Positions 3,111-25,916 of a stretch of 36,691 nt of DNA are shown piece by piece. A program made the translations under genes and the position numbers. Under the pieces are notes generated by a model. The model searched no databases. It saw only the letters and a list, made by a program, of their open reading frames with translations, and was not told the origin of the DNA. The DNA lies in NCBI GenBank assembly GCA_017417465.1, contig JAFPZD010000165.1, positions 1-36,691 on the forward strand, written 5' to 3'. Source of the DNA: Prevotella sp. (GTDB taxonomy: Bacteria; Bacteroidota; Bacteroidia; Bacteroidales; Bacteroidaceae). Every line of letters begins with the position of its first letter. Position 1 is the stretch's first letter.

Positions 3111-3146
3111 TTTTGACAATTTAACCATATTGCTTCCACATTCTAT

Positions 3147-3521: not shown

Positions 3522-3529
3522 CGTTTTAT

Positions 3530-3602: not shown

Positions 3603-3604
3603 TA

Positions 3605-3718
3605 AACTCGTAAGTCATAGGTTTACGACCCGTAAATGGAATACTTACGACTTGTAAATGGCATACTTATGACTCGTAAATGGCATACTTATGACCCGTA
3701 AATGGCATACTTACGACA
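3605..3718. repeat. Tandem array, 4+ units of 22 bp (CTTAYGACYCGTAAATGGCATA)
   Basis: GTAAATGG occurs at 3632, 3654, 3676 and 3698, a strict 22-base period, with a partial unit on each side. It abuts the 21-bp array but has an unrelated unit. Confidence 0.85.
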
Positions 3719-3725
3719 TGCTATA

Positions 3726-3996: not shown

Positions 3997-4236
3997 ACGG
4001 ATATTGTTTCTAATGACCGATTTTGGTTAAAAACTTTTTAGTAGAGGAGACATTCACAGGCTATGGGACTTCGGCTTAGTAAAAAGCCATTAGCAAGTTC
4101 TGCACAGCCAATGCGCCACTCTACTCGCGTGTATGCATCGAAGACAGAAATACCTATTTAATATTTATACACGGAAGGAATTGAGCGATTTCGGCTCTTT
4201 TTCGTTAATAATTTGTAAATAAACGCCTCAAAAAAG
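3997..4236. other. Gene-free stretch ahead of the susC-operon promoter
   Basis: Both strands show only short, stop-rich frames. I see no RNA gene or further repeat here. Confidence 0.6.
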
Positions 4237-4265
4237 TTTGCTTCTGCAAAAAATACGTACCTTTG
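4237..4265 (+). promoter_or_regulatory. Promoter of the secreted-protein/susCD unit
   Basis: TTTG at 4237-4240 and TACCTTTG at 4258-4265, 17 bases apart. An in-frame ATG at 4238 lies inside this promoter, so translation must begin later, at 4328. Confidence 0.8.
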
Positions 4266-4327
4266 CCCCAAATTGGACGAAAGCTTTTACAAACTATTTA
4301 CTAACAAAAATAAAAGAAAGGATTATT

Positions 4328-5512: not shown

Positions 5513-5536
5513 TGATGACTCACCACCGACTATAGG

Positions 5537-5584
5537 GCAAGAGAGACTGGCAGGCGTGCTGAGGCTGTCGGTTTCTCTTGCTTT
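5537..5584 (+). terminator. Hairpin between the secreted protein and the lipoprotein gene
   Basis: GCAAGAGA (5537-5544) pairs with TCTCTTGC (5574-5581), followed by TTTC. The T-run is short, so this may be a partial terminator that lowers expression of the following genes, which have no visible promoter of their own. Confidence 0.45.
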
Positions 5585-5623
5585 CGTTCATAACCGACAT
5601 TCATCAACCTAAAACAAACACTT

Positions 5624-7087: not shown

Positions 7088-7186
7088 CCGACAGCCCCGT
7101 CGCCAGGCGGGCGGCAACGCGCAGCGTAGGCCGCGGCAGGCCCGGTCCGGGAAACATATTAACCTCAATCAGAATTAGGACAACGT

Positions 7187-10543: not shown

Positions 10544-10585
10544 GAGAATTGATAACTGACAACTGATTATCGAAAACCAAGAATT

Positions 10586-12931: not shown

Positions 12932-12948
12932 GACGCCCCGGATTAACC

Positions 12949-13016
12949 AAAAAACATCCTGCATATCCTGCATATCCTGCACGTGCAGGGTATGCAGGAT
13001 ATGCAGGATGTTTTTT
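12949..13016. terminator. 34-bp-arm hairpin with no loop, after susD
   Basis: Left arm 12949-12982 and right arm 12983-13016 are reverse complements with one difference (a G-U pair in RNA). The arms start with A6 CATCCT and end with a T7 run, so it can terminate transcription in both directions. Inside the arm the 9-mer CATATCCTG is repeated. Confidence 0.9.
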
Positions 13017-13051
13017 TCTTTACTCAACTTCCGCATGTATTCGAATTAACC

Positions 13052-13129
13052 AAAAAACATCCTACACTTCCTACACTTCCTACACCTAAATTTAAGTGTA
13101 GGAAGTGTAGGAAGTGTAGGATGTTTTTT
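13052..13129. terminator. Second 34-bp-arm hairpin, same frame, different 9-nt unit
   Basis: Arms 13052-13085 and 13096-13129 are perfectly complementary, with a 10-base loop. The outer part A6 CATCCT is the same as in the preceding hairpin, but the repeated unit is CACTTCCTA. It lies 35 bases after the previous one; two strong terminators in tandem would fully isolate susCD from the pectate lyase gene. Confidence 0.9.
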
Positions 13130-13138
13130 GTGTTATTG

Positions 13139-13262
13139 TCAGTAACTCCGAAGTTACTCTCAGTATCTCCGAAGTTACTCTCAGTATCTTCGAAGTTACT
13201 GTCAGTATCTCCGAAGTTACTGTCAGTATCTCCGAAGTTACTGTCGGTATCTCCGAAGTAGG
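13139..13262. repeat. Tandem array, 6 units of exactly 21 bp (CAGTATCTCCGAAGTTACTGT)
   Basis: The CCGAAG (once TCGAAG) core is at 13148, 13169, 13190, 13211, 13232 and 13253, a strict 21-base period. Units differ at one to three positions. The flanks of the core (GTAACT..AGTTAC) are complementary, so each unit is a short palindrome. Confidence 0.9.
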
Positions 13263-13326
13263 CTGTCCAATTTGTTGTACCCGACTTTTAATATCTGCGT
13301 AGCCGATGCCGTAGGCATCAGACAAT

Positions 13327-13471
13327 GGTAGCCAGCCATTTTAATGGCTGGTAATAGGGACGGTATGGTGGGCGTGCCGTAGGTACGCGACGACAGTGGG
13401 TAGGCGTCGCGTACCTAAAGGCACGCTTCCCATCTGCCGTTTTGTACCAGCCGTTAAAACGGCTGGCTACC
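13327..13471. mobile_element. 145-bp element made of concentric inverted repeats (MITE-like)
   Basis: The outer arms 13327-13353 and 13445-13471 are inverted copies of a 27-mer (GGTAGCCAGCC...), differing at two positions. Inside, 13382-13392 and 13405-13415 are an 11-bp perfect inverted repeat with the same centre (near 13399), and the pieces between also pair loosely (GGGCGTGCC with GGCACGCTT). Each outer arm is itself a small hairpin. It encodes nothing convincing. A diverged relative is at about 30378-30470. Confidence 0.65.
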
Positions 13472-13617
13472 GTTGTCATGCCCCTACGGGGCTTTTCCCG
13501 GCGGCTGGCTACCGCTATCATTTTGGGTACAACAAAAGGACACCCTATCTCCGTTGGTTACAGTCAGTATCTCGGCTGGTTCTTTTTCGTTTAAGAAAGT
13601 GAAAAAACGCGAAACAT

Positions 13618-13648
13618 TTTGTAGAGTGCAGAAAAAAGTGTATCTTTG
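13618..13648 (+). promoter_or_regulatory. Promoter of the pectate lyase and probably the following operon
   Basis: TTTG at 13618-13621, 19 bases, then TATCTTTG at 13641-13648, an ideal match. It overlaps the in-frame ATG at 13646, which fixes the real start of the lyase at 13691. Confidence 0.85.
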
Positions 13649-13690
13649 CAGCTGATACGCAAAACAACTAATCTATACACCCAAAACGAC

Positions 13691-15463
13691 ATGAAGAAGT
13701 ACCTACCGTTATTGGCCGTCGTACTATTGACGGCATTGCCCGTTAGAGCACAATATCCGCAGATGACCGACGAGGCAGCAAAACTGATTGCCGACCTTAC
13801 CAAGCAGTGGGCAGCACACAGCGACTCCGCGTGGGAAGCGGCGTTCCCCATCATTGTGAAAGAAGCCAAGGAGGGGCGTCCCTTCGTACCCTGGGCCTCA
13901 CGCCCTTACGACCTGCGGCAGGCCAAGATTCCCGCCTTCCCAGGTGCTGAGGGTGGCGGCATGTTCACTTTTGGCGGCCGTGGCGGCAAGGTGCTCACCG
14001 TGAGCAACCTCAACGACTCTGGTCCAGGCTCGTTCCGCTGGGCCTGTGAGCAGGGTGGCGCCCGTATTGTGGTGTTCAACGTCTCAGGCATCATCCGCCT
14101 AAAATCGCCCATCAACGTGCGCGCTCCTTATATTACCATTGCTGGGCAGACAGCACCTGGCGACGGCGTCATCATTGCCGGTGAGTCGTTTCAGGTCGAC
14201 ACCCACGACGTCATCGTGCGCCACATGCGCTTCCGCCGAGGCGAGACGCTGGTGTGGCACCGTGAGGACTCCTTCGGTGGCAACCCCGTGGGCAACATTA
14301 TGATCGACCACTGCTCGTGCGAGTGGGGACTCGACGAGAACATCTCCTTCTATCGCCACATGTTCGACCTGCACGACGGCAAGGACAAGCGCAAGACGCC
14401 AACGGTGAACGTCACCATCCAAAACACCATCTCGGCAAAGGCGCTCGACACATGGAACCACTCTTTCGGCTCGACCATCGGCGGTGAGAACACCACCTTT
14501 ATGCGCAATCTATGGGCCGACAACACAGGGCGTAACCCAAGCATTGGCTGGGGCGGCGTCTTCAACTTCATCAACAACGTCGTCTACAACTGGGTACACC
14601 GTACGGCCGACGGCGGCGAGTACTCCACAATGTCGAACTTCATCAACAACTACTACAAGCCAGGACCGCTCACTCCGAAAGACACGCCAGTGGGACACCG
14701 CATCGTGAAGAGCGAGAGCCGCTCAGAGGGGCTCTTCCCCTTCAAGCAGTTCGGACGCGTGCATGCCACGGGTAACATCATGGAGGGCTTCCCAGAGATT
14801 ACACGCGACAACTGGAAGGGTGGTGTGCAGACCGCCGACAAGGACGGCGAAATGGACGAGACGGAGCTGACGCTGATGCGTTCCGACGAGCCGTTCGAGA
14901 TGCCTTTCGTCAGCATCATGGGGGCTGAGCAAGCCTTCAACTGGGTGCTGCAGAACGTAGGGGCCACGGTGCCCTGCCGCGACATCGTCGACGAGCGTAT
15001 CTGCGAGGAAGTGCGCACGGGCGTAGCCTACTACGTGAAAGACTACGAGAAAGAGCTGGCCAAGATTGAGAAGAAGACGGGCGTGAAGCAGAATCCCTAC
15101 GGCGACATGTGGGGCCTTAGTCCCAAGAGCCAGAACGAAGAGGGCTTCTTCAAATACCGCCGTCTTGGCAACGACAGCTACAAGCAGGGCATCATCACCG
15201 ACCCGCGCCAGATGGGCGGCTATCCCGACTACCGCGACTGGCAGCCCTACCAGGACACTGATCTCGACGGCATGCCCGATGCGTGGGAACTGGCTAACGG
15301 TCTGAACCCCAACGACCCTGCCGATGCCAACGGCGACCTGAACGGCGACGGCTACACGAACATCGAGAAATATATCAACGCCATTCCCACCACCTCGAAA
15401 GTGGATTGGCGCAACCTGAACAACAACTACGACACGCTGGCTGGAAAAGGCCGACTGATGTAG
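13691..15463 (+). CDS. Secreted pectate lyase, polysaccharide lyase family 1 type
   Basis: A protein of 590 residues. The signal peptide (MKKYLPLLAVVLLTALPVRAQ) supports the start at 13691. The body is a right-handed beta-helix: PGAEGGGMFTFGGRGGKVLTVSNLNDSG is the typical PL1 opening, DHCSCEWGLDENIS (206-219) matches the Ca-binding/active-site strand, and RNP at Arg281 followed by the NNVVYNW strand matches the catalytic-Arg region. The C-terminal part has two calcium-loop-like repeats (DTDLDGMPDAWE at 522-533 and NGDLNGDGYTN). PL1 cleaves polygalacturonate by beta-elimination, giving unsaturated oligogalacturonides. The family normally acts outside the cytoplasm. It comes 91 bases before the transketolase genes, with no new promoter seen between. 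Confidence 0.88.
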   Translation: MKKYLPLLAVVLLTALPVRAQYPQMTDEAAKLIADLTKQWAAHSDSAWEAAFPIIVKEAKEGRPFVPWASRPYDLRQAKIPAFPGAEGGGMFTFGGRGGKVLTVSNLNDSGPGSFRWACEQGGARIVVFNVSGIIRLKSPINVRAPYITIAGQTAPGDGVIIAGESFQVDTHDVIVRHMRFRRGETLVWHREDSFGGNPVGNIMIDHCSCEWGLDENISFYRHMFDLHDGKDKRKTPTVNVTIQNTISAKALDTWNHSFGSTIGGENTTFMRNLWADNTGRNPSIGWGGVFNFINNVVYNWVHRTADGGEYSTMSNFINNYYKPGPLTPKDTPVGHRIVKSESRSEGLFPFKQFGRVHATGNIMEGFPEITRDNWKGGVQTADKDGEMDETELTLMRSDEPFEMPFVSIMGAEQAFNWVLQNVGATVPCRDIVDERICEEVRTGVAYYVKDYEKELAKIEKKTGVKQNPYGDMWGLSPKSQNEEGFFKYRRLGNDSYKQGIITDPRQMGGYPDYRDWQPYQDTDLDGMPDAWELANGLNPNDPADANGDLNGDGYTNIEKYINAIPTTSKVDWRNLNNNYDTLAGKGRLM

Positions 15464-15554: not shown

Positions 15555-16418
15555 ATGAAGCTCTCAGAACTTGAATTATTAGCCGAACAGCGACGCAAAC
15601 GGCTGGTGGAAGTGGTCTATCGCGCAAAAGCTGGTCACATCGGCGGTGACTTGTCGTGCCTGAACGTGCTGACAGCACTTTACTTCCACGTCATGCAAGG
15701 CATCGACCCACAAGGAAATCCCCCACTCCGAGGAGGTCGGGAGGGAGCTCCAGAGCGCGACCGCTTCGTACTGTCGAAAGGTCACTGCGTAGAGGCGCTC
15801 TACGTGACGCTTGAGGCCCGTGGCTTCCTGAAGTCGGAAGTGCTCGACACTTTAGGACAGTTTGGATCGGTGCTCAGCGGGCACCCCACCATCGAGGTGC
15901 CAGGCATCGAGGTAAACAGTGGTGCCTTGGGCCATGGCCTACCCATTGGTGTGGGCATGGCTCTGGCCGCCAAGATGGACCAGAAGCCCTACCGTACCTA
16001 CGTCCTGATGGGCGACGGTGAGCAGGGTGAGGGCAGCATCTACGAGGCTGCCATGGCTGCCAACCGCTACCATTTAGACAATCTCGTGGCCATCATCGAC
16101 CGTAACCATCTGCAAATCAGCGGCAACACTGAGGATGTAATGCCCATCGACAGCATCCACGACCGCTGGTCAGCCTTCGGATGGGAGGTCACCACGATGA
16201 ACGGCGACGATATGGGGAGCATCATCAGCACCTTCGACGCCATCGACTACCAAAGCGGCAAGCCCCACCTGCTGGTCAGCGAGACAACAAAAGGCCGCGG
16301 CGTCAGCTTCATGGAAGGCATCGCCAAGTGGCACCACGGCGTACTCAACGAGGAACAGTGCAAGGCTGCCATCGCTGAGATCGAAGAGAGAATAAAAGCA
16401 CTGGAATCGTCGTTATAG
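15555..16418 (+). CDS. Transketolase-like, N-terminal (TPP diphosphate-binding) subunit
   Basis: A protein of 287 residues that covers only the N-terminal third of a transketolase. It has SKGHCVEALY with His77, the GHGLPIGVGMA segment, and the TPP/Mg motif GDG (153-155) followed about 30 residues later by DRNHLQ. The C-terminal half is encoded by the next gene, so the enzyme is a two-subunit transketolase. Known split forms include ordinary transketolase, apulose-4-phosphate transketolase (AptA/AptB) and the sulfo-sugar transketolase. The kinase two genes on favours the apulose type, as an inference. Residues about 55-66 (PPLRGGREG) come from a CCCCC...GGAGGGAG element that looks inserted into the loop before the RDRFVLSKGH motif. 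Confidence 0.88.
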   Translation: MKLSELELLAEQRRKRLVEVVYRAKAGHIGGDLSCLNVLTALYFHVMQGIDPQGNPPLRGGREGAPERDRFVLSKGHCVEALYVTLEARGFLKSEVLDTLGQFGSVLSGHPTIEVPGIEVNSGALGHGLPIGVGMALAAKMDQKPYRTYVLMGDGEQGEGSIYEAAMAANRYHLDNLVAIIDRNHLQISGNTEDVMPIDSIHDRWSAFGWEVTTMNGDDMGSIISTFDAIDYQSGKPHLLVSETTKGRGVSFMEGIAKWHHGVLNEEQCKAAIAEIEERIKALESSL

Positions 16419-16508
16419 TTATAACGAAATAATGTGATAACGAACCACCGTTAGAACGTAAGACCATTATAACGCCATAACGAAAACAAAAAAGAAAAAA
16501 GAAAGAAC

Positions 16509-17444
16509 ATGATTGCATGCAGAAAGCAGTTCACCGACACGCTCTTGGAACTGGCGCGTGAAGATAAAGATATCATTGCCGTGACCACCGACGCACGTGG
16601 CTCTGTCACCCTTGGCGATTTTTCTACAGCCCTGCCCCAGCAATTCGTCGAGTGTGGCATCGCTGAACAGGACGCCGTGGGCATCTCAGCTGGTCTGGCC
16701 CATTCGGGCAAGAAAGTGTTCTGTTGCGGACCAGCCTGCTTCTACGTAGCTCGCGCCTTGGAGCAGGTAAAAGTCGATCTGGCCTACTCAGAGAACCCTG
16801 TCACCATTCTGGGGGTCAGCGGCGGCGTGGCCTATGGAGCCCTTGGCGCCACACACCACTCGTTACACGACATTGCAGCCCTGCGCACCTTCCCTGGCAT
16901 GACGATATGCCTGCCCAGCGACTGGCATGTGACGAAGAAATTGGTAAAGTTCCTCGTCGACTACGACAAGCCCTGCTACGTTCGTGTGGGGCGTGCCGCC
17001 GTGCCCGATGTCTATTCCGACGATGACTTCACGTTCGAAGTGGGAAAGGCCATCACCGTCGTCGATGGAACCGACCTGACCATCGTGGCCACAGGCGAGA
17101 CCGTATGGCATGCCTGGCAGGCCGCCTTGCAACTGAAGGAGCAAGGCATTGCAGCCCGCGTGCTCGACTGCTCATGGCTGAAGCCCTTCGACGAGGAGGC
17201 CATCCGTCGTGCCGCCCGTGAGACAGGGCGCATCATTACTGTCGAGGAGCACAGCCGCTTTGGTGGCCTCGGCGCCATGGTCTGTGAAGTGCTCAGCGAG
17301 CAGCCCGTGCCCGTCCGCATCATTGGCATCCCCGATGAGAATGTCGTCCACGGCACCAACGCCGAAATATTCCACCACTACGGTATGGATGCCGAGGGCA
17401 TCGTCCGTGCAACGCTCTCCTTCCTTGCAACTCCAAACTCCTAA
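16509..17444 (+). CDS. Transketolase-like, C-terminal (pyrimidine-binding) subunit
   Basis: A protein of 311 residues matching the Pyr domain and C-terminal domain of transketolase. ECGIAEQDAVGISAGLA holds the catalytic Glu (Glu53) that activates the thiamine ring; GATHHSLHD supplies a substrate-side His pair; RVGR and the C-terminal Rossmann-like part (DLTIVATGE, WLKPFDEE, EEHSRFGGLG) follow. It forms the active site with the product of the preceding gene (gap 90 bases, containing several ATAACG repeats). It would move a two-carbon ketol unit between sugar phosphates in the cytoplasm. 1-deoxyxylulose-5-phosphate synthase is excluded by the split and the neighbours, but not strictly by motif. 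Confidence 0.88.
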   Translation: MIACRKQFTDTLLELAREDKDIIAVTTDARGSVTLGDFSTALPQQFVECGIAEQDAVGISAGLAHSGKKVFCCGPACFYVARALEQVKVDLAYSENPVTILGVSGGVAYGALGATHHSLHDIAALRTFPGMTICLPSDWHVTKKLVKFLVDYDKPCYVRVGRAAVPDVYSDDDFTFEVGKAITVVDGTDLTIVATGETVWHAWQAALQLKEQGIAARVLDCSWLKPFDEEAIRRAARETGRIITVEEHSRFGGLGAMVCEVLSEQPVPVRIIGIPDENVVHGTNAEIFHHYGMDAEGIVRATLSFLATPNS

Positions 17445-17470
17445 TTCCTAACTCACTCCTACCCTACCCC

Positions 17471-18994
17471 ATGAACTACATCATCGCTATTGACCAGAGC
17501 ACATCGGCCACGAAGGCCATGCTGTTCGATGAGCAGTGCCACCTATTGGCACGTGCCGACAAGGAGCATCGGCAGTACTACCCTCAGACTGGTTGGGTGG
17601 AGCACGACGCTGAGGAAATCTTTAATAACATGGTGGAGGTCATCCGCCAAGTGGTTGCCCATACTTCGTCCCCCAAAGGGAATACCATAGACAGTGCCGC
17701 CTCAAACTCTTCTGAAGCCGTAGGGGGCGCTTTCTCGCTCTGTATCACCAACCAGCGGGAAACGGTCGTGGTGTGGAACCGCCACACAGGGAAGCCCATC
17801 TCACGGGCTGTCGTTTGGCAGGACACACGTGGCAAGGACATCTGCAACCAACTGCGTGTCGACGGTCAAGGACCCTTAGTGCTGGAGCGTGCTGGCTTGC
17901 TCATCGATCCGAACTTTTCCGCACCAGGTGTTAAATGGCTGCTCGACAACATCGAGGGCGCACGAGAGGCCGCCGCGAGTGGTGACCTGCTGATGGGCAC
18001 CATCGACACATGGCTCGTCTGGAAGCTCACGGGAGGCCGTGTGCACGCCACCGACACCACCAACGCCTCGCGCACCATGCTGTTCAACATCCACACCCTG
18101 CAGTGGGACGACGACCTGCTGCGTCTCTTCGACATACCACGCTCCATGATGCCTGAGGTGAAAGCCTGCGATGCCATCTATGGCGAGACCACCGTCGAAG
18201 GGCTCTTCGCTGAGCCCATCACGATAGCCGGCATGCTGGGCGACTCGCACGGCGCTCTCGTCGGGCAGATGTGCTTCGACGAAGGTATGGGCAAGGTAAC
18301 CTACGGCACGGGCAGCAGCGTGATGGTGAACATCGGCGAAAAACCACTGCCGGCTCCTGACGGACTGGTAACCAGCGTGGGCTTCTCAGCCTTCGGCAAG
18401 ACATGGTACGGCTACGAGGGAAACATCTACAGCACGGGCGCCACCCTGAAATGGATTGCTGACCAGCTGCAGCTGGTAGGCCATCCGAAGGAGATGGAGG
18501 CGCTGGCCACCAGCGTCGCCGACAACGGCGGCGTCTACATCGTGCCAGCATTCTCTGGGCTGGGTGCCCCATGGTGGCAGAGTGGCGTGAAGGGAGCCGT
18601 TTTCGGACTGACCTTCGCCACCACGAAAGCCCACTTTTTGCGCGCAGCCTTGGAGTCGATTGCCTATCAGATAAAAGACCTTGTGGATGTGATGGCGCGT
18701 GCCACAGGAGCACCGTTGAAGGAAATTGCCGCCGACGGTGGGCCTACGAAGAACCGTTTCCTCATGCAGTTCCAGGCCGACATGCTGAGCACGCCCGTGG
18801 TCTGTACCGAGGTCGAAGATGCCTCAGCCTTTGGCGCCGTGCTGATGAACGGTTTCGCCCGTGGCCTATGGCAGACGTTCGACGAGGTGGCGCCCCTGCG
18901 TAAGGTGACACAGGTCATTCAGCCCCAATCGCGCCCTGACGTTACCACCCTCTATGACGGCTGGCGACGCGCCGTGGAACAACTCATCCGATAA
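17471..18994 (+). CDS. FGGY-family sugar kinase, glycerol-kinase-like branch (possible apulose kinase)
   Basis: A protein of 507 residues, full length for FGGY kinases. It starts YIIAIDQSTSATKAMLF (phosphate loop 1), has GWVEHDAEEI, TNQRETVVVW, the WQDTRGKD motif, GTIDTWLVWKLTGG, the phosphate loop YGTGSS, and the C-terminal ATP site AADGGPTKNRFLMQ. It resembles glycerol kinase overall, but differs where GlpK has GDQQAALFGQ (here GDSHGALVGQ), so the substrate is probably not glycerol. Next to a split transketolase the best fit is D-apulose kinase (AplK type); a ketose kinase of another kind is possible. Residues about 67-87 (SSPKGNTIDSAASNSSEAVGG) are extra relative to GlpK and derive from a CCCCC..GGGGG element. 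It is 26 bases after the transketolase. Confidence 0.85.
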   Translation: MNYIIAIDQSTSATKAMLFDEQCHLLARADKEHRQYYPQTGWVEHDAEEIFNNMVEVIRQVVAHTSSPKGNTIDSAASNSSEAVGGAFSLCITNQRETVVVWNRHTGKPISRAVVWQDTRGKDICNQLRVDGQGPLVLERAGLLIDPNFSAPGVKWLLDNIEGAREAAASGDLLMGTIDTWLVWKLTGGRVHATDTTNASRTMLFNIHTLQWDDDLLRLFDIPRSMMPEVKACDAIYGETTVEGLFAEPITIAGMLGDSHGALVGQMCFDEGMGKVTYGTGSSVMVNIGEKPLPAPDGLVTSVGFSAFGKTWYGYEGNIYSTGATLKWIADQLQLVGHPKEMEALATSVADNGGVYIVPAFSGLGAPWWQSGVKGAVFGLTFATTKAHFLRAALESIAYQIKDLVDVMARATGAPLKEIAADGGPTKNRFLMQFQADMLSTPVVCTEVEDASAFGAVLMNGFARGLWQTFDEVAPLRKVTQVIQPQSRPDVTTLYDGWRRAVEQLIR

Positions 18995-19006: not shown

Positions 19007-19663
19007 ATGATCAAAGTATTCTGCGTACACACCGCCATGGCTCTTGTGGAGCCACTGACAAAGATTTTCAGGGAGTACCTGCCCGAAGTGAAGGTGAACC
19101 ATATTGCTGACGACTCGCTGATTCAGGAAGTCATCGCCAACGGTGAGGTGACGCCAGCCGTGCGCCGACGTCTGTTGTCCTACTACAACGGGGCGGCCGA
19201 TGGTGGAGCCGACGTGGTGTTCAACACCTGCTCCAGTGTGGGCGACGTGGCCGACTACGGCAACCAGTATGCCCGCATCCCCGTGTTCCGCATCGACCAG
19301 CCGATGGCAGCACTGGCCGTAAGCAGCTACCAGCGCATCGGCGTCATCTCAACACTGCCGACCACCCTAGCCCCCACCTGCCGCCTGCTACGCAACGAAG
19401 CGGCCAAAGCAGGACGCGACGTCTCACTGGTGGAGGGCTTGGCCGACGGTGCCTTTGCCGCAGGACAGAGTGGCGACGGCGAAACCCACGACCGCCTCAT
19501 CGCTGAGGCAGCACAGCGCATCGCCTCACAGGTCGACATGTTCGTGCTGGCTCAAGGGTCGATGGCTCGCATGGAGCAGCGACTCAGCGAGCTGACGGGC
19601 AAGCCAGTGCTCTCCAGTCCCATACTGGGCGTAAAAGGTCTTCGCAAGTTCCTCGGCCTATGA
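19007..19663 (+). CDS. Asp/Glu/hydantoin-racemase-fold protein with one catalytic Cys replaced
   Basis: A protein of 218 residues with the two-domain fold of the Asp/Glu racemase superfamily (also maleate isomerase and arylmalonate decarboxylase). The first catalytic Cys is present (Cys75 in FNTCSSVGD). The position of the second Cys, normally in a VLGCTH-like motif, reads LAQGSMARM with Ser185. Two cysteines are needed for racemisation by the usual two-base mechanism, so this protein may be a single-Cys isomerase or decarboxylase. It begins 12 bases after the kinase and its stop overlaps the start of the transporter gene (ATGA), so the three are translated together. A role on the same sugar acid is inferred; none is known to me. 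Confidence 0.75.
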   Translation: MIKVFCVHTAMALVEPLTKIFREYLPEVKVNHIADDSLIQEVIANGEVTPAVRRRLLSYYNGAADGGADVVFNTCSSVGDVADYGNQYARIPVFRIDQPMAALAVSSYQRIGVISTLPTTLAPTCRLLRNEAAKAGRDVSLVEGLADGAFAAGQSGDGETHDRLIAEAAQRIASQVDMFVLAQGSMARMEQRLSELTGKPVLSSPILGVKGLRKFLGL

Positions 19664-20901
19664 GCAAGGAGCCCTCGACCTCAGGTCACACGCTACCAAA
19701 GAGACGCAAGAACGTCATACTGACCATGCTCGTGCTGTTGGGCATGGTCACTTTCCTCGACCGTATCAACATCAGCGTGGCAGGATCGAGCATCATGCAC
19801 GACCTGCAGTTGTCGCCAGCACAGTGGGGCTGGGTGCAGAGTGCGTTCATTCTCTCCTATGGTCTGATGCAGATACCGATGGGATGGCTTGGCGACCGCT
19901 TCGGCCATCGCGGCGTGCTGGCACTCATCGTACTCTGGTGGTCAGCGTTCACGGCATTCACAGGCATGGCGGGTGGTCTGTTGTCGTTGCTCGTCATCCG
20001 CTTTATGTTTGGCATCGGCGAGGCTGGCTCGTCACCGTGTAGCACGGGCGTCATAAGCCGCTGGTTCGAGAAGGGCGAAGTCGGCAAGGCGCAAGGCTAC
20101 GTCTGGGCAGCCAGCCGTATGGGCGGCGCCCTGACGCCTTTCGTTGTCATCCCCGTCATGGCGTGGCTGGGCTGGCGCGAGGCCTTCTATCTTCTGGGAG
20201 CGCTCGGCGTGGTCTGGGCTATCGTGTGGTATTGGTATTACAGGCCAGCCTCCAAACCAACAGACTCCCCTTCCTCACAACAGAGAGTCAAGGGGGCGTC
20301 CGTTGCCTGGCTTTCTTCAACGCAGTTCTGGCTCATCTGCGCCATGTACTTTTTCTACGCCTTCGGCTCGTGGTTCTTCTTCTCATGGTTCCCCACCTTC
20401 ATGGAGTTGGGACGTGGGTTTAGCAAGAGTGAACTGACATACGCTGTGGCTGTGCCATTTATCATGAGCATGTTGGGCAACATTACAGGCGGTCACCTCA
20501 CCGACCGACTCACAAAGCGCTACGGGCTGAAAGTGGGCCGCAAGGCACTGGGCAGCACCTCGCTGGCCGTGTCAGCCGTGTGCATGTTCTTAGCAGCCTT
20601 CATTCCAGGCAAGATGGCCGTATTCGTGTTCCTCTCGCTCTGCTTCGGCATCTTCGACCTGATGCTACCTTCTGCCTGGGCACTCTGCATAGACTTGGGC
20701 AAGAAGCAAGCGGGCACACTCAGCGGTGCCATGAACACGGCAGGAAACCTCGGCGGATTCTGTTGCGGCATCCTCTTCGGGCAGCTTGTCGAGTCATCTG
20801 GCAACTACAACCTGCCGCTCTACATGATTGCCCTGATGCTCATCATTAGCGCCAGTCTCTTTGCATTCATCAACCCTGAAAAATCCATCGTTAAAAGCTG
20901 A
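19660..20901 (+). CDS. MFS transporter, anion:cation symporter family (hexuronate/sugar-acid type)
   Basis: A protein of 413 residues with about 12 membrane segments. The N-terminal pattern NVILTMLVLLGMVTFLDRINISVA and the loop GWLGDRFGHR are typical of the ACS family (GudP/ExuT-like), which brings in sugar acids with protons. The arginine in FLDRINIS and the acidic/Gly loop fit a carboxylate substrate. It would import the sugar or sugar acid used by the block. The start codon overlaps the stop of the racemase-like gene. The central cytoplasmic loop (about 202-213) carries a CTCCCC..GGGGGCG element. It ends 33 bases from the converging DUF1537 gene. Confidence 0.88.
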   Translation: MSKEPSTSGHTLPKRRKNVILTMLVLLGMVTFLDRINISVAGSSIMHDLQLSPAQWGWVQSAFILSYGLMQIPMGWLGDRFGHRGVLALIVLWWSAFTAFTGMAGGLLSLLVIRFMFGIGEAGSSPCSTGVISRWFEKGEVGKAQGYVWAASRMGGALTPFVVIPVMAWLGWREAFYLLGALGVVWAIVWYWYYRPASKPTDSPSSQQRVKGASVAWLSSTQFWLICAMYFFYAFGSWFFFSWFPTFMELGRGFSKSELTYAVAVPFIMSMLGNITGGHLTDRLTKRYGLKVGRKALGSTSLAVSAVCMFLAAFIPGKMAVFVFLSLCFGIFDLMLPSAWALCIDLGKKQAGTLSGAMNTAGNLGGFCCGILFGQLVESSGNYNLPLYMIALMLIISASLFAFINPEKSIVKS

Positions 20902-20934: not shown

Positions 20935-22152
20935 CTACACCGCTTTTAACTTCTGGTAAACCGCTCTTAGCGACTCATCATCGCCCACATTACCTGGGAA
21001 GATGACGTAGGGGAAGTCCTTTGTCATGACACAAGGGACATTAGGGATGATTTGTCCCAACACGCGGGCACACTTCACGCCCAGCCCTTTCGTTAGGATA
21101 TCGTGAGAGGTAATGCCACCCTTGGCGACCAGACACGAGGGCACAAAAGGCAACCGACAGACAACGGACACAAGGAAGTCGCTGACCTGCTGCCCAAGAT
21201 GCTGGCGCTGGTCAGCATCGGCCAGACGTAACTCCTGGCGTGAGGTATAGACGACGGGCGTCCTTCGCGCATGCACGTTAGATAATAAGGTGTCTAACGT
21301 CTCAGCCAGCAGTGCCTCAGAGTCGTCGAGGATGCGCTGCACGTCGACCTCCACGCCTGCCGTTCCATCGGCAGAGAGCAGTCGTCCTAACTGCCGTGTG
21401 GTCTTCTGCACATGGGAACCGACAATGAAAAGTGGCAAGTGACTAGTGTCAAGTGCCAACTGGGCAAGGGTGAGAAGGGGCTTGTCTGGAATACCAGCCA
21501 TGGCCTTGGGAAGCGACGAGGAGGAGCGGACGACCACATGCCCGTCAGCGGGAAGCGTCTGGACAAAGCGGAGCAGCTCGTCGTAGCTTTGCGCATCGAC
21601 AATCTCGTAATCATCAGGGTTGGCACCTTTCTCTGCAATGTAGTCACGGAGCACGCTGGTGTGGTAAGCAAAGACGTTGTCGCGGGCAAACTCCGTCTCA
21701 CTGATGGGGACAAGGCGCTCGCCGTCCTTCATGTAATGAACACCGTCAATAGTGAAGCGCCCTGCCTCGATGAAAGCAGGACAGAACGGTGTCTTCGAAG
21801 CCACAGGCAAGCCATGGCGCACCAGACAGTCACGGATGACATCAGTCTCCAGCGGGAAGTGGCCACGCAGGCAACTGTCGCTACGACTCACCAGAATCAA
21901 GCGACAGCCAAAGTCGCGATTCACACGGATGACCATCTCCGTGGCCTCACGCGTCACCGTGGCAGCCTCCTCGCTAGTCATGGCGCGAGTGTTCGTCAGG
22001 ATGTAGAAGAACGGCACATCGTCCTGAAAGGCACTCCGCACGCTCTCCTCGTCCCACTGCGTGATGAGCAGACAGCCATGCACGGTCTGTATGCCTGTCG
22101 GGTCGTCGTCGAGAACGACCATTTTAGTATTTGTCAACTTACGTTTTGCCAT
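20935..22152 (-). CDS. DUF1537 family kinase (four-carbon acid sugar kinase type)
   Basis: A protein of 405 residues. I start it at the ATG at 22152 (MAKRKLTNTK), because the DDDPTG motif then sits about 17 residues in, as usual; ATG codons further up- and downstream are possible. Seen motifs: VVLDDDPTGIQTVHG at the N-terminus, LVSRSDSCLRGHFPLE (substrate loop), and C-terminal VAKGGITSHDILTKGLGVKCARVLGQIIPNVP (nucleotide-binding half). Characterised members phosphorylate 3-oxo-tetronate, D-threonate, D-erythronate or 3-oxo-isoapionate. Family members are normally next to OtnC, PdxA2 or a RuBisCO-like protein; here the neighbour is a BKACE enzyme. It is downstream of the BKACE gene on the same strand, separated by a long hairpin. 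Confidence 0.85.
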   Translation of the reverse strand: MAKRKLTNTKMVVLDDDPTGIQTVHGCLLITQWDEESVRSAFQDDVPFFYILTNTRAMTSEEAATVTREATEMVIRVNRDFGCRLILVSRSDSCLRGHFPLETDVIRDCLVRHGLPVASKTPFCPAFIEAGRFTIDGVHYMKDGERLVPISETEFARDNVFAYHTSVLRDYIAEKGANPDDYEIVDAQSYDELLRFVQTLPADGHVVVRSSSSLPKAMAGIPDKPLLTLAQLALDTSHLPLFIVGSHVQKTTRQLGRLLSADGTAGVEVDVQRILDDSEALLAETLDTLLSNVHARRTPVVYTSRQELRLADADQRQHLGQQVSDFLVSVVCRLPFVPSCLVAKGGITSHDILTKGLGVKCARVLGQIIPNVPCVMTKDFPYVIFPGNVGDDESLRAVYQKLKAV

Positions 22153-22236
22153 TTGGGATAGTACAATTACGCTGCGCAAATAAAATAGTAAATAAGTAAC
22201 TATTCAAATTTAGTTTATACAAATAATCCTTTTTCC

Positions 22237-22309
22237 AACAACGAATTCGACGAATTAAACGAATTGCTGCGCGGTGTAATTCGTTTAATTCGTTTAATTC
22301 GTTGTTTTT
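22237..22309. terminator. 29-bp-arm hairpin made of CGAATTAAA units
   Basis: Arms 22237-22265 and 22278-22306 pair with two adjacent mismatches, loop 12 bases, then a run of T. The 9-mer CGAATTAAA (or its complement) is repeated two to three times in each arm. Read on the minus strand it lies between BKACE and DUF1537, where it would reduce readthrough or protect the BKACE message end. Confidence 0.8.
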
Positions 22310-22337
22310 ATATAACAATTGTGTTCATCTACTTAGA

Positions 22338-22377
22338 AAATAGTAAATAGTAAATAGTAAATAGTCAAATAGTAAAT
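22338..22377. repeat. Heptamer array AAATAGT overlapping the BKACE stop codon
   Basis: AAATAGT is repeated four times at 22338-22365, then a C, and once more at 22367-22373 followed by AAAT. The stop codon of the BKACE gene (complement of TCA at 22365-22367) falls in the array. Confidence 0.8.
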
Positions 22378-23204
22378 GCCTCGATGTGTTGCATTGCCCT
22401 GGCCTCAGCAGGGGTGGCAGGCTCGCACCCCATCATGCGGATCAGTGCGACGAGTCGCTCCACCAGTTCGGCATTGGTATGGGCACGTATCCCCTCAGCA
22501 TAGTAGAAGCTGTCCTCAAAGCCTACGCGGACGGCCGATGCTCCCATGCCAATGGCGCAGGCCAGCATCGAGAAGTCCTTCATCGAGTCGTGGGTAATAC
22601 CCCACGTCGTGCCAGGCTCCATCAGCGAGCAGAGCATCGCCAAGTTACGCCCCGTGGCCGAGAGATTCGACGAGTTGCCAGGCCCCACACAGAAGTTATA
22701 GTGCAACGGACGGTGCAGCACACCCTCGTCGGCCAATCGCGTGGCACACTCCACGTGACTCAGGTCGAAGAGCTCCATCTCTGGCACGGTGTGGGTCTCG
22801 TCGAGCCGTTTCGCCCAGTAGCGCAGGTCGGGCATGGTGTTGATATACACCGTCTCGCCAAAGTTGACGCTGCCCATGTTCAGCGATGCCACCTCCACCT
22901 CAGGCACGTCGAGACTCACGCAACGCTCAGCAAGCGTCAGCGTCGAGAGTCCGCCAGTGCTGCCCTGCACAATCATGTCTGTCTCCTTACGAATCAGTCC
23001 GATGGTCTGACGAAACACGTCCAGCTCAAACGTCGGATTCCCCTGCAGGTCACGTGTGTGCAGGTGCACCTCGCAGGCGCCTGCCTTGTAGCAGTCAATG
23101 GTGTCGCGAGCAATCTCCTCGGGTGTCAGTGGATTCTTTACGTCGGCCGGAATTGGCTTTCCTACGTGGCAGACAGGTGCCACCGTTACGATGATTTTCC
23201 TCAT
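22365..23204 (-). CDS. Beta-keto acid cleavage enzyme (BKACE, DUF849)
   Basis: A protein of 279 residues starting at the ATG at 23204 (MRKIIVTVAPVCH), which lies 56 bases past a clear minus-strand promoter; further upstream frames are not supported. The zinc motif CEVHLHTRD gives His47 and His49, and ASAVRVGFEDS gives Arg226, Glu230 and Asp231, the same numbering as the catalytic set of 3-keto-5-aminohexanoate cleavage enzyme (Kce), so it should be active. BKACE enzymes convert a beta-keto acid plus acetyl-CoA to acetoacetate plus the CoA ester of the shortened acid. The substrate is unknown; next to a DUF1537 kinase it may be a 3-oxo sugar acid or its phosphate. It is divergent from the isomerase-like gene. 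Confidence 0.88.
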   Translation of the reverse strand: MRKIIVTVAPVCHVGKPIPADVKNPLTPEEIARDTIDCYKAGACEVHLHTRDLQGNPTFELDVFRQTIGLIRKETDMIVQGSTGGLSTLTLAERCVSLDVPEVEVASLNMGSVNFGETVYINTMPDLRYWAKRLDETHTVPEMELFDLSHVECATRLADEGVLHRPLHYNFCVGPGNSSNLSATGRNLAMLCSLMEPGTTWGITHDSMKDFSMLACAIGMGASAVRVGFEDSFYYAEGIRAHTNAELVERLVALIRMMGCEPATPAEARAMQHIEAFTI

Positions 23205-23259: not shown

Positions 23260-23294
23260 CAAAGGTACAAAGTATTTTTCAATTCGCTGCCAAA
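23260..23294 (-). promoter_or_regulatory. Promoter of the BKACE-DUF1537 unit
   Basis: On the minus strand TACCTTTG (complement of 23260-23267) is followed at 56 bases by the BKACE start. TTTG (complement of CAAA at 23291-23294) is a possible -33 box, 23 bases away. It faces the isomerase promoter, whose -33 box starts 4 bases further. Confidence 0.65.
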
Positions 23295-23368: not shown

Positions 23369-24793
23369 ATGAAGAACGGAAAGACTTGTTTCGGCGTGAT
23401 CATTGGTACACGCGCCTATTTTAACTCCGAGCTGGCACGCGACGTACGCCGGCAACTGCTCAAGACGATGGACGACTTGGGCTACGAGTACATCATCCTG
23501 CCTGAAGACGCCACGCCGACGGGTAGCAGTAGCATCGAGACCCGCGAGGACGGCCTGAAGGTCTCTAAGCAGTTCCGCGAGCATCGCGACGAGATCGACG
23601 GCATCGTTGTCTCGCTGCCCAACTTCGGCTTCGAGATTGGCATCATCAATGCCATCAGCGATGCCGACCTCAACGTCCCCGTGCTAGTGCAGGCCTGCGA
23701 CGACGAAAACGACAAAGTTGACCTCGACTCGCGACGCGACGCCTTCTGCGGCAAAATCTCAGTATGCAACAACCTCTACCAGTACGGCATCCCCTTCACC
23801 GACACCACCCTGCACACCTATTCTATATATAGTCCACTGCTGGCACAAGACCTGCAGCGCTTCGCAGCCATCTGCCGCGTGGTCAACGGCCTGCGCCACT
23901 GCCGCATCGGACAGATTGGCACGCGCCCATTGGGGTTCAACACCTGCCGCGCCTCAGAGAAGCTGTTGCAGCGCAGCGGCATCACCGTCGTGCCTGCCGA
24001 CCTGAGCGAGATTCTCTTTGCCGCCCAGAAGGTAAGCGACGACGATCCGAAGCTGGAGGAGATGTGCAGCCGCATACACAACTACGCCAAGGTGCCCGAG
24101 GCCTATCAGGAGAAGCTGCGCCTGCAAGCCAAGTTCGGCGTGGCTGTAGAGAATTGGATCGAAGCCAACGATGTGCAGGCCGTAGGCATACAGTGCTGGG
24201 ACTCGCTCGAGCAGAACTACGGCTGTGCGCCCTGTATCACCATGTCGATGCTGTCAGACAAGCTCATCCCTGCCGCCTGCGAGACCGACCTTGCAGGAGC
24301 CGTCTCAATGTACGCTCTCGCACTGGCCTCAGGTAAGGCACCCGCACTCCTCGATTGGAACAACAATTTCGCCGAAGAGCGCAACAAATGCGTCTGCACC
24401 CACTGTGGCAACTTCCCACGCTCGTTTGTCGGCAACGACGACCTGAAGCTTGGCCCACTCGGCGTCCTCGGCCGTACACTTGGCAAGGTGAACACCTTCG
24501 GCGCTGTCTACGCCAAGGTGAGCGAGGGTCCCTTCACCTTCTTCCGCATCTCCACCGACGACCCACGTGGCTGCATCAAGGCTTACCTTGGCAAGGGCGA
24601 AATCACCAACGATCCCTACGGCATGGACGGGTGTATCGCTGTCACGAAGGTCGACAACCTGCAGCGCCTGATGAAGTACATCTGCAAGAATGGCTTCGAA
24701 CACCACGTTGCTATGTGCCGCACCGACGTGGTCGACATCCTTAACGAGGCCATCGACACCTACCTCGGCTGGAACCTTTACGTACACGAGTAG
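23369..24793 (+). CDS. L-fucose/arabinose-isomerase-like protein (COG2407 group), possible D-apiose isomerase
   Basis: A protein of 474 residues without signal peptide, in the group of fucose-isomerase-related proteins. The likely metal ligands are Glu305 (in ACETDLAGA), Asp329 (in LLDWNNNF) and a C-terminal His pair (His445/446 in FEHHVAM); the Glu-Asp spacing of 24 equals that of FucI (337/361). The N-terminal part (GTRAYFNSELARDVRRQLL) and the IDGIVVSLPNFG strand belong to the Rossmann-like substrate domains. It would convert an aldose to a ketose. With a FGGY kinase and split transketolase in the same block, isomerisation of D-apiose to D-apulose is an attractive guess. I cannot assign the sugar from sequence alone. 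An AT-only patch at 23819-23833 stands out. Confidence 0.7.
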   Translation: MKNGKTCFGVIIGTRAYFNSELARDVRRQLLKTMDDLGYEYIILPEDATPTGSSSIETREDGLKVSKQFREHRDEIDGIVVSLPNFGFEIGIINAISDADLNVPVLVQACDDENDKVDLDSRRDAFCGKISVCNNLYQYGIPFTDTTLHTYSIYSPLLAQDLQRFAAICRVVNGLRHCRIGQIGTRPLGFNTCRASEKLLQRSGITVVPADLSEILFAAQKVSDDDPKLEEMCSRIHNYAKVPEAYQEKLRLQAKFGVAVENWIEANDVQAVGIQCWDSLEQNYGCAPCITMSMLSDKLIPAACETDLAGAVSMYALALASGKAPALLDWNNNFAEERNKCVCTHCGNFPRSFVGNDDLKLGPLGVLGRTLGKVNTFGAVYAKVSEGPFTFFRISTDDPRGCIKAYLGKGEITNDPYGMDGCIAVTKVDNLQRLMKYICKNGFEHHVAMCRTDVVDILNEAIDTYLGWNLYVHE

Positions 24794-24800
24794 AAAGAGT

Positions 24801-24842
24801 GAAGAATGAAGAATGAAGAGTGAAGAGTGAAGAGTGAAGAAT
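24801..24842. repeat. Heptamer array GAAGARY/GAAGAGT
   Basis: Six units of GAAGAAT or GAAGAGT in direct repeat, with a partial one ahead, directly after the isomerase stop. It lies in the 170-base gap before the aldo/keto reductase; such heptamer arrays are prone to slippage. Confidence 0.8.
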
Positions 24843-24965
24843 TTGCTACCGCCGTACCATTAGCGGACTGGACAGTAGCTATTCTCCTTTACTCCTAACC
24901 CCTAACTGTCGGGTGGGCGGCATATTTGCCGCCATTCCCAACTTCTCCCTCCCAACTCCCAAGAT

Positions 24966-25916
24966 ATGCAATACAACGAATTAGGACGTACAGGCTTGCG
25001 CCTGTCAAACCTCGGCTTCGGAGCTTCCTCCCTCGGCGGCGTGTTCCACGGCATCCGCGAGGAGGAAGGCATCGAGGCAGTGTTCACCGCCCTCGAAGGC
25101 GGCATTAACTTCATCGACGTGTCGCCCTACTACGGCCACCTGAAGGCCGAGACCGTGCTGGGCAAGGCCCTGCGCCAAGTTGCTCGCGACCGCTACATCC
25201 TCTCCACAAAGGTGGGACGCTATGGGCAGGACGGCGTGAACACGTGGGACTACTCTGCCGAACGCGTCACGCGTAGCGTCTACGAGAGCATGGAGCGCCT
25301 TGGCGTCGACCACATCGACATCATCAACGTCCACGATGTTGAGTTCCAGGGCGACCGCCCTAGCGGGCTCCAACTCATCGTCGACGAGACGCTCCCCGCA
25401 CTCGTGCGACTGCGCGACGAGGGTGTCGTTGGCCATGTGGGCATCACCGACCTGCAGCCCGAGAATCTCCGATGGGTCATCGAGCACGCAGCACCTGGCA
25501 CCGTCGAGAGTGTCCTGAACTTCTGCCACTACGCCCTGAACGATACCTTGCTGCTCGACCACCTCGACTTCTTCGAACAGCACGGCGTGGGCGTCATCAA
25601 CGCCTCACCTTTCTCCATGGGACTCCTCTCCGACCGTGGCACACCCGACTGGCACCCAGCACCTGCCGCACTGAAAGAGGCTTGCGCACGTGCCGCCGCC
25701 TACTGCCGCGAGCAGGGCTACCCCATCGACAAGCTCGCCATCCAGTTCTCCACCAGCCTCAACCCGCGCATCGCCTCAACCCTCTTCAGCAGTGCCAACC
25801 CCAAGAATGTGCTGAAGAACATTGCCTACGTCAACGAGCCCTGCGACATGCAGCTGGTTCAAAAAGTACAGGAAATCATCGGCACCCAGATGTTCGTCCG
25901 CTGGAAGAACTCATAA
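24966..25916 (+). CDS. Aldo/keto reductase, L-galactose/L-fucose dehydrogenase type
   Basis: A protein of 316 residues, normal for the AKR fold. The catalytic tetrad is complete: Asp51 and Tyr56 in INFIDVSPYYG, Lys82 in STKVGRYG, and His123 in NVHDVEF. The overall pattern (LGFGASSLGGVF, SAERVTRSVYESMERLGVDHIDI, SVLNFCHYALND, INASPFSMGLL) is very close to plant L-galactose dehydrogenase and bacterial D-threo-aldose (L-fucose) dehydrogenases. It would oxidise an aldose to its lactone with NAD(P). L-galactose, L-fucose and apiose all occur in rhamnogalacturonan II, so this may handle one of them. It follows the isomerase by about 170 bases with no clear promoter of its own. Confidence 0.8.
   Translation: MQYNELGRTGLRLSNLGFGASSLGGVFHGIREEEGIEAVFTALEGGINFIDVSPYYGHLKAETVLGKALRQVARDRYILSTKVGRYGQDGVNTWDYSAERVTRSVYESMERLGVDHIDIINVHDVEFQGDRPSGLQLIVDETLPALVRLRDEGVVGHVGITDLQPENLRWVIEHAAPGTVESVLNFCHYALNDTLLLDHLDFFEQHGVGVINASPFSMGLLSDRGTPDWHPAPAALKEACARAAAYCREQGYPIDKLAIQFSTSLNPRIASTLFSSANPKNVLKNIAYVNEPCDMQLVQKVQEIIGTQMFVRWKNS

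What the first reader, a model, noticed from the sequence alone, without database searches (positions are those of the whole stretch)
20935..23204. DUF1537 kinase paired with a BKACE (DUF849) enzyme: a pairing I do not know from described pathways
DUF1537 kinases phosphorylate 3-oxo or hydroxy sugar acids and normally feed OtnC, PdxA2 or a RuBisCO-like protein. Here none of these is present, but a BKACE with an intact His47/His49/Arg226/Glu230/Asp231 set is. A 3-oxo sugar acid is itself a beta-keto acid, so acetyl-CoA-dependent cleavage by BKACE could replace decarboxylation. This would be a new way to break a sugar acid.
Basis: partly seen in the sequence, partly recalled or inferred. Interest (0 to 1): 0.8.

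Follow-up and report, generated by a model that had tools for sequence, protein, structure and literature searches.

The report
Sugar-acid gene module with odd BKACE
Rumen and gut relatives of Prevotella carry a compact four-gene set (a transporter, a racemase-like enzyme, a sugar-acid kinase and an unusual member of a carbon-cutting enzyme family) that looks like an undescribed way of breaking down a sugar acid.

Summary
DUF1537 kinase (20935-22152, -) and BKACE (22365-23204, -) are intact and their pairing is conserved: the kinase is in 76 of 80 related loci. Two more genes belong: a racemase-like protein (19007-19663) and an MFS carrier (19660-20901). All four occur in eight different layouts. 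In 201 sampled family genomes, BKACE and racemase are in the same two.

The clade keeps the catalytic residues but lacks the [GA]xGxxQ stretch of 18 of 18 other BKACEs compared. None of 15 module genomes searched has a true thiolase or PF01144 CoA-transferase, though this control is mixed. The kinase groups with 2-oxo-tetronate-kinase-like proteins, and the racemase recurs with DUF1537 plus a RuBisCO-like protein or class II aldolase. I think the BKACE takes their place, most likely as a CoA-free zinc decarboxylase of a phosphorylated oxo acid. Substrate and chemistry are untested. BKACE on a sugar acid is already proposed for deoxyribonate. New variant of a known kind.

The parts
22365..23204 (-). 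divergent BKACE (DUF849, PF05853), 279 aa
   Evidence: Pfam 243.9 bits; H47/H49/R226/E230/D231 in 80/80 aligned clade sequences, [GA]xGxxQ stretch replaced
20935..22152 (-). DUF1537 kinase (PF07005 + PF17042), 405 aa, DDDPTG type, in a clade with kinases of 2-OtnK-like gene context
   Evidence: Pfam; tree
19660..20901 (+). MFS carrier, nearest to the D-galactonate-transporter model, 413 aa
   Evidence: PF07690 191.8 bits; best NCBIfam TIGR00893, 214.7 bits, below its cut-off of 395; in 62 of 80 loci
19007..19663 (+). Asp/Glu-racemase-like protein, 218 aa, with one motif cysteine (C75) and AQGS where a second cysteine would be expected (expectation recalled)
   Evidence: PF01177 57.9 bits; C75 invariant in 23/23 aligned; same two genomes of 201 as BKACE
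23260..23294 (-). Bacteroides-type promoter TTTG-N23-TAccTTTG upstream of the BKACE
   Evidence: pattern search, 5 sites in the window against 0.24 expected; the consensus is recalled
22237..22306 (.). 29-nt inverted repeat (93% complementary) in the 212-bp gap between BKACE and kinase

Best explanation
A self-contained sugar-acid catabolic module. The MFS carrier imports a short sugar acid, probably already an oxo acid (tetronate-sized, e.g. an oxo-tetronate). The racemase-like enzyme epimerises or tautomerises it next to the oxo group. The DUF1537 kinase phosphorylates its terminal hydroxyl. The divergent BKACE uses its Zn site to polarise the 3-oxo group and breaks the C1-C2 bond, i.e. decarboxylates the phosphorylated 3-oxo acid without CoA; for an oxo-tetronate this gives dihydroxyacetone phosphate directly. 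So the BKACE fold does here the job that OtnC, class II aldolase-type 2-OtnC or RuBisCO-like proteins do elsewhere. Shown: the four intact genes, their linkage and co-occurrence, the family memberships, the kept catalytic residues and the changed stretch. Inferred: substrate, order of steps, decarboxylation, independence from CoA.
For: Linkage: kinase in 76/80, MFS 62/80, racemase 54/80, all four 53/80 loci, in eight four-gene layouts. Co-occurrence: BKACE and racemase are in the same 2 of 201 family genomes; racemase in 16 of 17 module genomes and 0 of 19 relatives without the module. Partner swap: racemase + DUF1537 occurs with class II aldolase in Deinococcus and Rhodococcus, and with an OiaX-like RuBisCO-like protein in Rufibacter and 7 of 16 Bacteroidota DUF1537 loci fetched. 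Kinase tree: the window kinase groups with kinases next to LtnD-family dehydrogenase, aldolase or tartrate-dehydrogenase-like genes, 99/96. The three-step threonate route ends in DHAP through a DUF1537 kinase and an F_bP_aldolase-type OtnC (PMC12540250, passages citing Guo 2024). One DUF849 group, G6, is described as 'not BKACE, presenting decarboxylation activity' (PMC4922564, passage), and BsfD is a DUF849 enzyme with divergent, decarboxylating chemistry (PMC12871164, passages). No true thiolase and no PF01144 match over the cut-off in 15 of 15 module genomes searched. [GA]xGxxQ replaced in 80/80 aligned, kept in 18/18 others.
Against: No dehydrogenase belongs to the module, and LtnD-type PF14833 is in only 1 of 15 module genomes, so where the oxo acid comes from is open. 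The catalytic pentad of acetyl-CoA-dependent BKACEs is fully kept. Absence of thiolase is not decisive: 7 of 12 Bacteroidota with other BKACEs also lack one. The column of BsfD's CoA-contacting arginine is Met in 80/80 here but is not Arg in 11 of 18 other BKACEs either, so it does not prove loss of CoA. The stretch differences are partly selected for, because the 80 loci were found with peptide patterns from two of them. In 5 of 9 plasmid racemase contexts looked at, no DUF1537 was annotated nearby (against 40, 41, 46, 101). The BKACE-linked kinases form one group with only 74/100 support. No structure could be predicted.
Confidence: 0.45

Rival explanations
1. One reading: the BKACE uses acetyl-CoA to cleave a (phosphorylated) 3-oxo sugar acid into acetoacetate and a hydroxyacyl- or phosphohydroxyacyl-CoA.
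For: All five canonical catalytic residues kept in 80/80 aligned. BKACE cleavage of 2-deoxy-3-keto-ribonate has genetic evidence in three genera (PMC6365646, passages). Some other Bacteroidota keep BKACEs without a thiolase.
Against: No true thiolase or PF01144 transferase in 15/15 module genomes searched; [GA]xGxxQ replaced; no acyl-CoA-handling gene among the four; a C2 hydroxyl would have to be tolerated at the enolate carbon (inference).
Confidence: 0.2
2. The BKACE fold does other CoA-free Zn chemistry on the phosphorylated acid: hydrolytic C2-C3 cleavage, retro-aldol or isomerisation.
For: The sister modules use either a RuBisCO-like protein or a class II aldolase in that place; cis-epoxysuccinate hydrolase is a sequence relative in the PDB.
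Against: Nothing specific for any of these; decarboxylation has a closer precedent in the family.
Confidence: 0.2
3. The BKACE acts first on a non-phosphorylated beta-keto acid and the DUF1537 kinase phosphorylates the acid set free (glycerate or glycolate), as glycerate kinase does in deoxyribonate catabolism.
For: Glycerate kinase is needed in the deoxyribonate pathway (PMC6365646, passages).
Against: The kinase's relatives sit with dehydrogenase, aldolase or tartrate-dehydrogenase-like genes, as expected for oxo-tetronates; no thioesterase or CoA-transferase among the four genes.
Confidence: 0.1
4. Chance neighbours without a shared pathway.
For: In the window they are 212 bp apart, with an inverted repeat between them.
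Against: Kinase in 76/80 loci, eight gene layouts, matching genome distribution.
Confidence: 0.02

Closest known systems
Three-step L-threonate/D-erythronate pathway (LtnD, 2-OtnK, 2-OtnC; Guo 2024, known here only through passages of PMC12540250)
   Same: DUF1537 kinase in one clade with kinases of that gene context; ends with a C-C-breaking Zn/TIM-barrel enzyme (fold recalled)
   Different: No LtnD-type gene in 14 of 15 module genomes (PF14833); BKACE in place of the F_bP_aldolase protein; extra racemase-like gene
D-apiose/apionate pathways with OiaK and RuBisCO-like OiaX/OiaC (Carter 2018, not held; cited in PMC6302742)
   Same: The same racemase family (41% identity to the Rufibacter one) sits with an OiaK-like kinase and OiaX-like protein in other Bacteroidota
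   Different: The window kinase does not align significantly with that kinase subfamily (E 0.56); BKACE instead of the RuBisCO-like protein; MFS instead of a bile-acid:Na symporter-type carrier
BKACE of oxidative deoxyribose/deoxyribonate catabolism (PMC6365646, passages)
   Same: BKACE proposed to act on a 3-oxo sugar acid
   Different: Has an SDR dehydrogenase; no DUF1537 is mentioned in the passages seen; acetyl-CoA-dependent as proposed. Our clade is 27-39% identical to the 18 other BKACEs compared; the P. simiae protein itself was not compared
BsfD of flavophos synthesis (PMC12871164, passages)
   Same: DUF849 enzyme shown to do divergent, decarboxylating chemistry; Phe at the Tyr145 position
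   Different: Uses acetyl-CoA as acetyl donor on a phosphonate; Phe in that column is common (16 of 18 others)

Membership tests
BKACE / DUF849 (PF05853) | profile match over the curated cut-off | tested here: met
   243.9 bits, cut-off 24.8
BKACE / DUF849 (PF05853) | Zn ligands and catalytic residues H47, H49, E230, R226, D231 | tested here: met
   80/80 aligned clade sequences, 18/18 others; the roles of the residues are recalled
BKACE / DUF849 (PF05853) | [GA]xGxxQ stretch before the R-x-G-x-E-D motif (noticed here, not a published criterion) | tested here: not met
   third-position G and the Q in 18/18 others (first position G in 15, A in 3); clade has H/N, S/Q/A and D, 80/80; the loci were picked partly by this stretch
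BKACE / DUF849 (PF05853) | acetyl-CoA-dependent cleavage to acetoacetate | not testable with these tools
   needs enzyme assays; thiolase/PF01144 transferase absent in 15/15 genomes searched
[quoted passage not shown]
   229.9 bits, cut-off 382
[quoted passage not shown]
   136 and 117.2 bits, cut-offs 25 and 28.3
2-OtnK pathway (LtnD + 2-OtnK + 2-OtnC) | kinase in the same clade as LtnD/aldolase-linked kinases | tested here: met
   99/96 for the clade of 18 kinases; calling that clade 2-OtnK-like rests on gene context, no characterised 2-OtnK was in the tree
2-OtnK pathway (LtnD + 2-OtnK + 2-OtnC) | LtnD-type dehydrogenase in the genome | tested here: not met
   PF14833 in 1 of 15 module genomes and 0 of 16 relatives; not in the window's own genome
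OiaK/OiaX isoapionate module | OiaK-type kinase and RuBisCO-like protein | tested here: not met
   window kinase has no NF042436 hit at 0.001 and does not group with OiaK-like kinases
PdxA2-linked D-threonate kinase (DtnK) | equivalog score and PdxA next door | tested here: not met
   53.2 bits, cut-off 450; no PdxA among the scanned neighbours; the genome's other DUF1537 is PdxA-paired

The most novel reading that the evidence does not exclude
A whole DUF849 subfamily, carried by some eighty or more rumen and gut Bacteroidales genomes, has become a CoA-free zinc decarboxylase (or other C-C lyase) of phosphorylated oxo sugar acids. It displaced RuBisCO-like proteins and aldolase-type OtnC in a kinase/racemase pathway whose substrate is a plant-derived oxo acid not yet described as a nutrient.
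Probability: 0.4. Interest if true: 0.72.

Novelty: new variant of a known kind. Interest (0 to 1): 0.6.

Why it matters
If true, it adds another solution to the C-C-breaking step of DUF1537 sugar-acid pathways and a new reaction for the BKACE fold, and gives a function to genes of common rumen bacteria that would otherwise carry the general label '3-keto-5-aminohexanoate cleavage protein' (the label seen for other BKACEs), i.e. lysine fermentation. The racemase-like protein, shared with RuBisCO-like-protein modules, gives a handle on an unassigned step there too. Records of named strains carry it (Palleniella muris NM73_A23, P. intestinalis PINT, Hoylesella loescheii An865), so it can be tested.

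Tried and rejected
Tyr145 to Phe as a sign of changed chemistry, suggested by PMC12871164: dropped, because 16 of 18 other BKACEs compared also have Phe in that column, including the Fusobacterium vincentii one, whose neighbouring ORF sizes look like a lysine-fermentation cluster (that reading of the cluster is recalled). The column was placed through the alignment to 2y7d with a numbering offset of 6 that I inferred.

Loss of the CoA-contacting Arg/Lys of BsfD as proof of CoA independence: weakened, because only 7 of 18 other BKACEs have Arg and 6 of 18 Lys in the aligned columns. These columns were placed through the alignment to PDB 9zsc, which I take to be BsfD; the call does not say so.

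Neighbouring genes outside the module as clues to the substrate: 20 proteins from six loci scanned (L062 7, L032 2, L048 1, L019 3, L081 3, L094 4); 16 had hits, mostly housekeeping or surface functions. No lead.

PDB relatives by phmmer: none for the kinase and only a chance-level hit for the racemase. Structure prediction: not available. Papers not held: Zhang 2016, Guo 2024, Carter 2018.

None of this moved the odds.
Full report
What is there. The window (G000:C34 of a 4.4-Mb, 278-contig assembly, 90.8% complete, 5.53% contamination) has on its minus strand a BKACE (22365-23204) and a DUF1537 kinase (20935-22152), both intact and over their Pfam cut-offs. The gap between them is 212 bp and holds a 29-nt inverted repeat. 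The BKACE has its own Bacteroides-type promoter pattern, divergent from one before the fucose-isomerase-like gene (the consensus is recalled). It is the only BKACE match in the genome. The genome's other DUF1537 lies beside a PdxA-like gene on another contig.

Is the pairing real? In 201 sampled genomes of the same family (own genome included), searched by Pfam profile and so without bias to motifs, BKACE was in 2 and DUF1537 in 5. Both BKACE genomes have the pair side by side. In 345 sampled Bacteroidota genomes BKACE was in 16 and PF17042 in 17; only G000 and G403 have both, and in G403 they are on different contigs. So the pairing belongs to this BKACE clade, not to BKACEs in general. A scan of the genome collection found 103 relatives of this BKACE, of which the best 80 were kept; all 80 were examined, the other 23 were not seen. 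The kinase is in the locus in 76. In the genomes of the other four, one search found a kinase on another contig for L028 and L077, a 52-residue piece at a contig edge for L056, and none for L088, whose contig stops about 100 bases after the BKACE. Of 56 same-strand pairs measured, 51 have 23-137 nt between the BKACE stop and the kinase's DDDPTG codons. G122 and L084 are probably the same contig (both 81,374 bases), and L028 and L045 come from one assembly, so not all loci are independent. Two of the 80 records carry Lachnospiraceae or Bacillota labels (L043, L065), possibly misbinned.

Two more genes belong. Clustering of the neighbours showed an MFS carrier in 62 and a 218-aa Asp/Glu-racemase-like protein in 54 of 80 loci, all four genes in 53. 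There are eight four-gene layouts. The commonest is BKACE-kinase with MFS and racemase convergent (33, the window counted); others are BKACE-MFS-kinase (15, of which 8 have the racemase too, in either direction), racemase-MFS-BKACE-kinase (4), BKACE-racemase-MFS with the kinase reversed (4), racemase-MFS-kinase-BKACE (2). Of the 26 loci without a racemase, I searched 15 genomes; 14 carry it elsewhere. In all, 16 of 17 module genomes have it against 0 of 19 relatives without the module, and in the 201 it is in exactly the two BKACE genomes. Reshuffling with retention, plus matching distribution, is strong evidence for one pathway. The other genes scanned around are mostly housekeeping or surface functions, so the module looks autonomous. 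In the window and six loci (L017, L018, L020, L021, L028, L038) it sits inside a cluster of split transketolase, glycerol-kinase-like FGGY kinase and fucose-isomerase-like genes.

What the kinase is. NCBIfam gives no equivalog (best 53.2 bits against a cut-off of 450). In a tree of 31 DUF1537 proteins it falls, with 99/96 support, among 18 kinases (9 of them BKACE-linked). The neighbours of the other nine are an LtnD-family dehydrogenase and/or a class II aldolase (Arthrobacter, Rhodococcus, Deinococcus, three Bacilli), or a tartrate-dehydrogenase-like Iso_dh with a PF04199 cyclase (Bacteroidota; L140, L141, L145 scanned by Pfam for the dehydrogenase, L141 also for the cyclase; L150 placed by ORF sizes only). 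The clade is apart from PdxA-linked and RuBisCO-like-protein-linked kinases. The BKACE-linked kinases group together with only 74/100, and one very long branch (PDXA_Rhodococcus) was flagged. LtnD plus a DUF1537 kinase plus an F_bP_aldolase-type OtnC is the three-step threonate route ending in DHAP (passages of PMC12540250 citing Guo 2024). No characterised 2-OtnK was in my tree, so '2-OtnK-like' rests on context.

What the racemase tells. Proteins 40-45% identical to it stand beside DUF1537 plus class II aldolase in Deinococcus taeanensis and Rhodococcus antarcticus, and in a module RuBisCO-like protein - DUF1537 - racemase - bile-acid:Na-symporter-type carrier in Rufibacter and 7 of the 16 DUF1537 loci fetched from Bacteroidota. 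The Rufibacter RuBisCO-like protein and kinase score 508.8 and 441.9 bits on OiaX and OiaK (both cut-offs 700). A Natronosalvus plasmid has DUF1537, RuBisCO-like protein, SDR and the racemase together. Against this, 5 of the 9 plasmid racemase contexts looked at had no annotated DUF1537 within 5 kb (one of them has an aldolase next door), and two of the other four had been picked for their kinase. So where racemase and kinase stand together, the C-C-breaking enzyme is exchanged, and the BKACE occupies that place. C75 is kept in 23 of 23, and the later motif reads AQGS, AQAS or AQVS. I infer an epimerase or keto-tautomerase acting next to the oxo group.

What the BKACE is. H47, H49, R226, E230 and D231 are in all 80 aligned clade sequences (window plus 79 of 80 loci; L024 dropped by a length filter). 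Against 18 other BKACEs (27-39% identical; 12 Bacteroidota, 6 plasmid-borne) the clade differs in an N-terminal Cys-His (79 of 80, absent in 18), the stretch around HDSMKDF where 18 of 18 others have [GA]xGxxQ, an SSN loop (N180 in 80/80, in none of 18) and R133 (80/80 against 2 of 18). Caveat: the 80 loci were found with peptides from two of these stretches. A phosphate site in the GxGxSSN loop is a guess.

Against acetyl-CoA. In 15 module genomes searched, the best thiolase-family match is 32.2 bits, with frame sizes of the FabF/FabH kind (my reading), and no PF01144 match passes the cut-off; one reaches 21.2 of 23 bits. The control is mixed: of 12 Bacteroidota with other BKACEs, 5 have thiolases at 297-339 bits and 7, all of one family, do not. 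For another chemistry: one DUF849 group, G6, is summarised as 'not BKACE, presenting decarboxylation activity' (passage of PMC4922564 on its reference 1, which I take to be Bastard 2014), and BsfD does acetyl transfer followed by decarboxylation (passages of PMC12871164). Price et al. propose BKACE cleavage of 2-deoxy-3-keto-ribonate, with genetic but, as they say, no direct evidence for the cleavage (passages of PMC6365646).

Most likely working. MFS uptake of an oxo acid; epimerisation or tautomerisation; terminal phosphorylation; Zn-assisted decarboxylation by the BKACE. A tetronate is favoured by the kinase clade and because its product, DHAP, would need no further gene. 3-oxo-isoapionate is the alternative, favoured by the sister OiaK/OiaX-like module and by the pectin-type surroundings of the window. 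The weak point is the missing dehydrogenase: PF14833 is in 1 of 15 module genomes.

In print? Searches showed no description of a DUF1537-BKACE pair, judged from the listings (20 of 45 hits listed, 20 of 40, 20 of 21) and passages of seven papers. The one paper holding both DUF names treats them separately (passages of PMC10971088). The library lacks most subscription journals.

Noticed in passing
window 348-15463: Polysaccharide-utilisation locus with GH2, DUF4992/DUF4957/DUF5123 protein, SusC-like/SusD pair and a protein weakly like pectate lyase PelZ (136.3 bits, cut-off 840): pectin-type by my reading.
   Followed up: no
window 15555-18994 and 23369-25916: Split transketolase, GlpK-like FGGY kinase, fucose-isomerase-like protein and aldo/keto reductase surround the module; resembles an apulose-type route (recalled). 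All but the aldo/keto reductase are shared with six other loci.
   Followed up: partly
window 22237-22306: 29-nt inverted repeat between BKACE and kinase; a 17-nt unit of it (up to 2 mismatches) occurs four times in the window, all here, none expected by chance.
   Followed up: partly
L142, L144, L146-L149, L151, L138: RuBisCO-like protein - DUF1537 - racemase - bile-acid:Na-symporter-type module in Bacteroidota; the Rufibacter (L138) proteins are OiaX/OiaK-like but well below the equivalog cut-offs: function probably not settled.
   Followed up: partly
L140, L141, L145: DUF1537 with tartrate-dehydrogenase-like Iso_dh, MFS and GFO/IDH/MocA oxidoreductase, and a PF04199 cyclase scanned in L141: another pairing that I do not know; in L140 the kinase is split into two ORFs.
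   Followed up: partly
L032 12934-13947, L048 13061-13714: A URO-D-family protein and a Met_synt_B12-domain protein (clusters C54, C55) lie between kinase and MFS in some loci: perhaps corrinoid-dependent methyl transfer.
   Followed up: no
L156 2968-3825, L157 2968-3822: Halobacterial BKACEs beside an SDR dehydrogenase and sugar ABC transporter genes: possibly another sugar-acid BKACE.
   Followed up: no
alignment: The statement in PMC12871164 that all BKACE sequences have the catalytic Tyr does not fit: 16 of 18 BKACEs compared here have Phe in the aligned column.
   Followed up: partly
L097-L103, L105 (family f17 genomes): BKACEs in genomes of one Bacteroidota family of which 7 of 8 have no true thiolase: fate of acetoacetate there unclear.
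   Followed up: no
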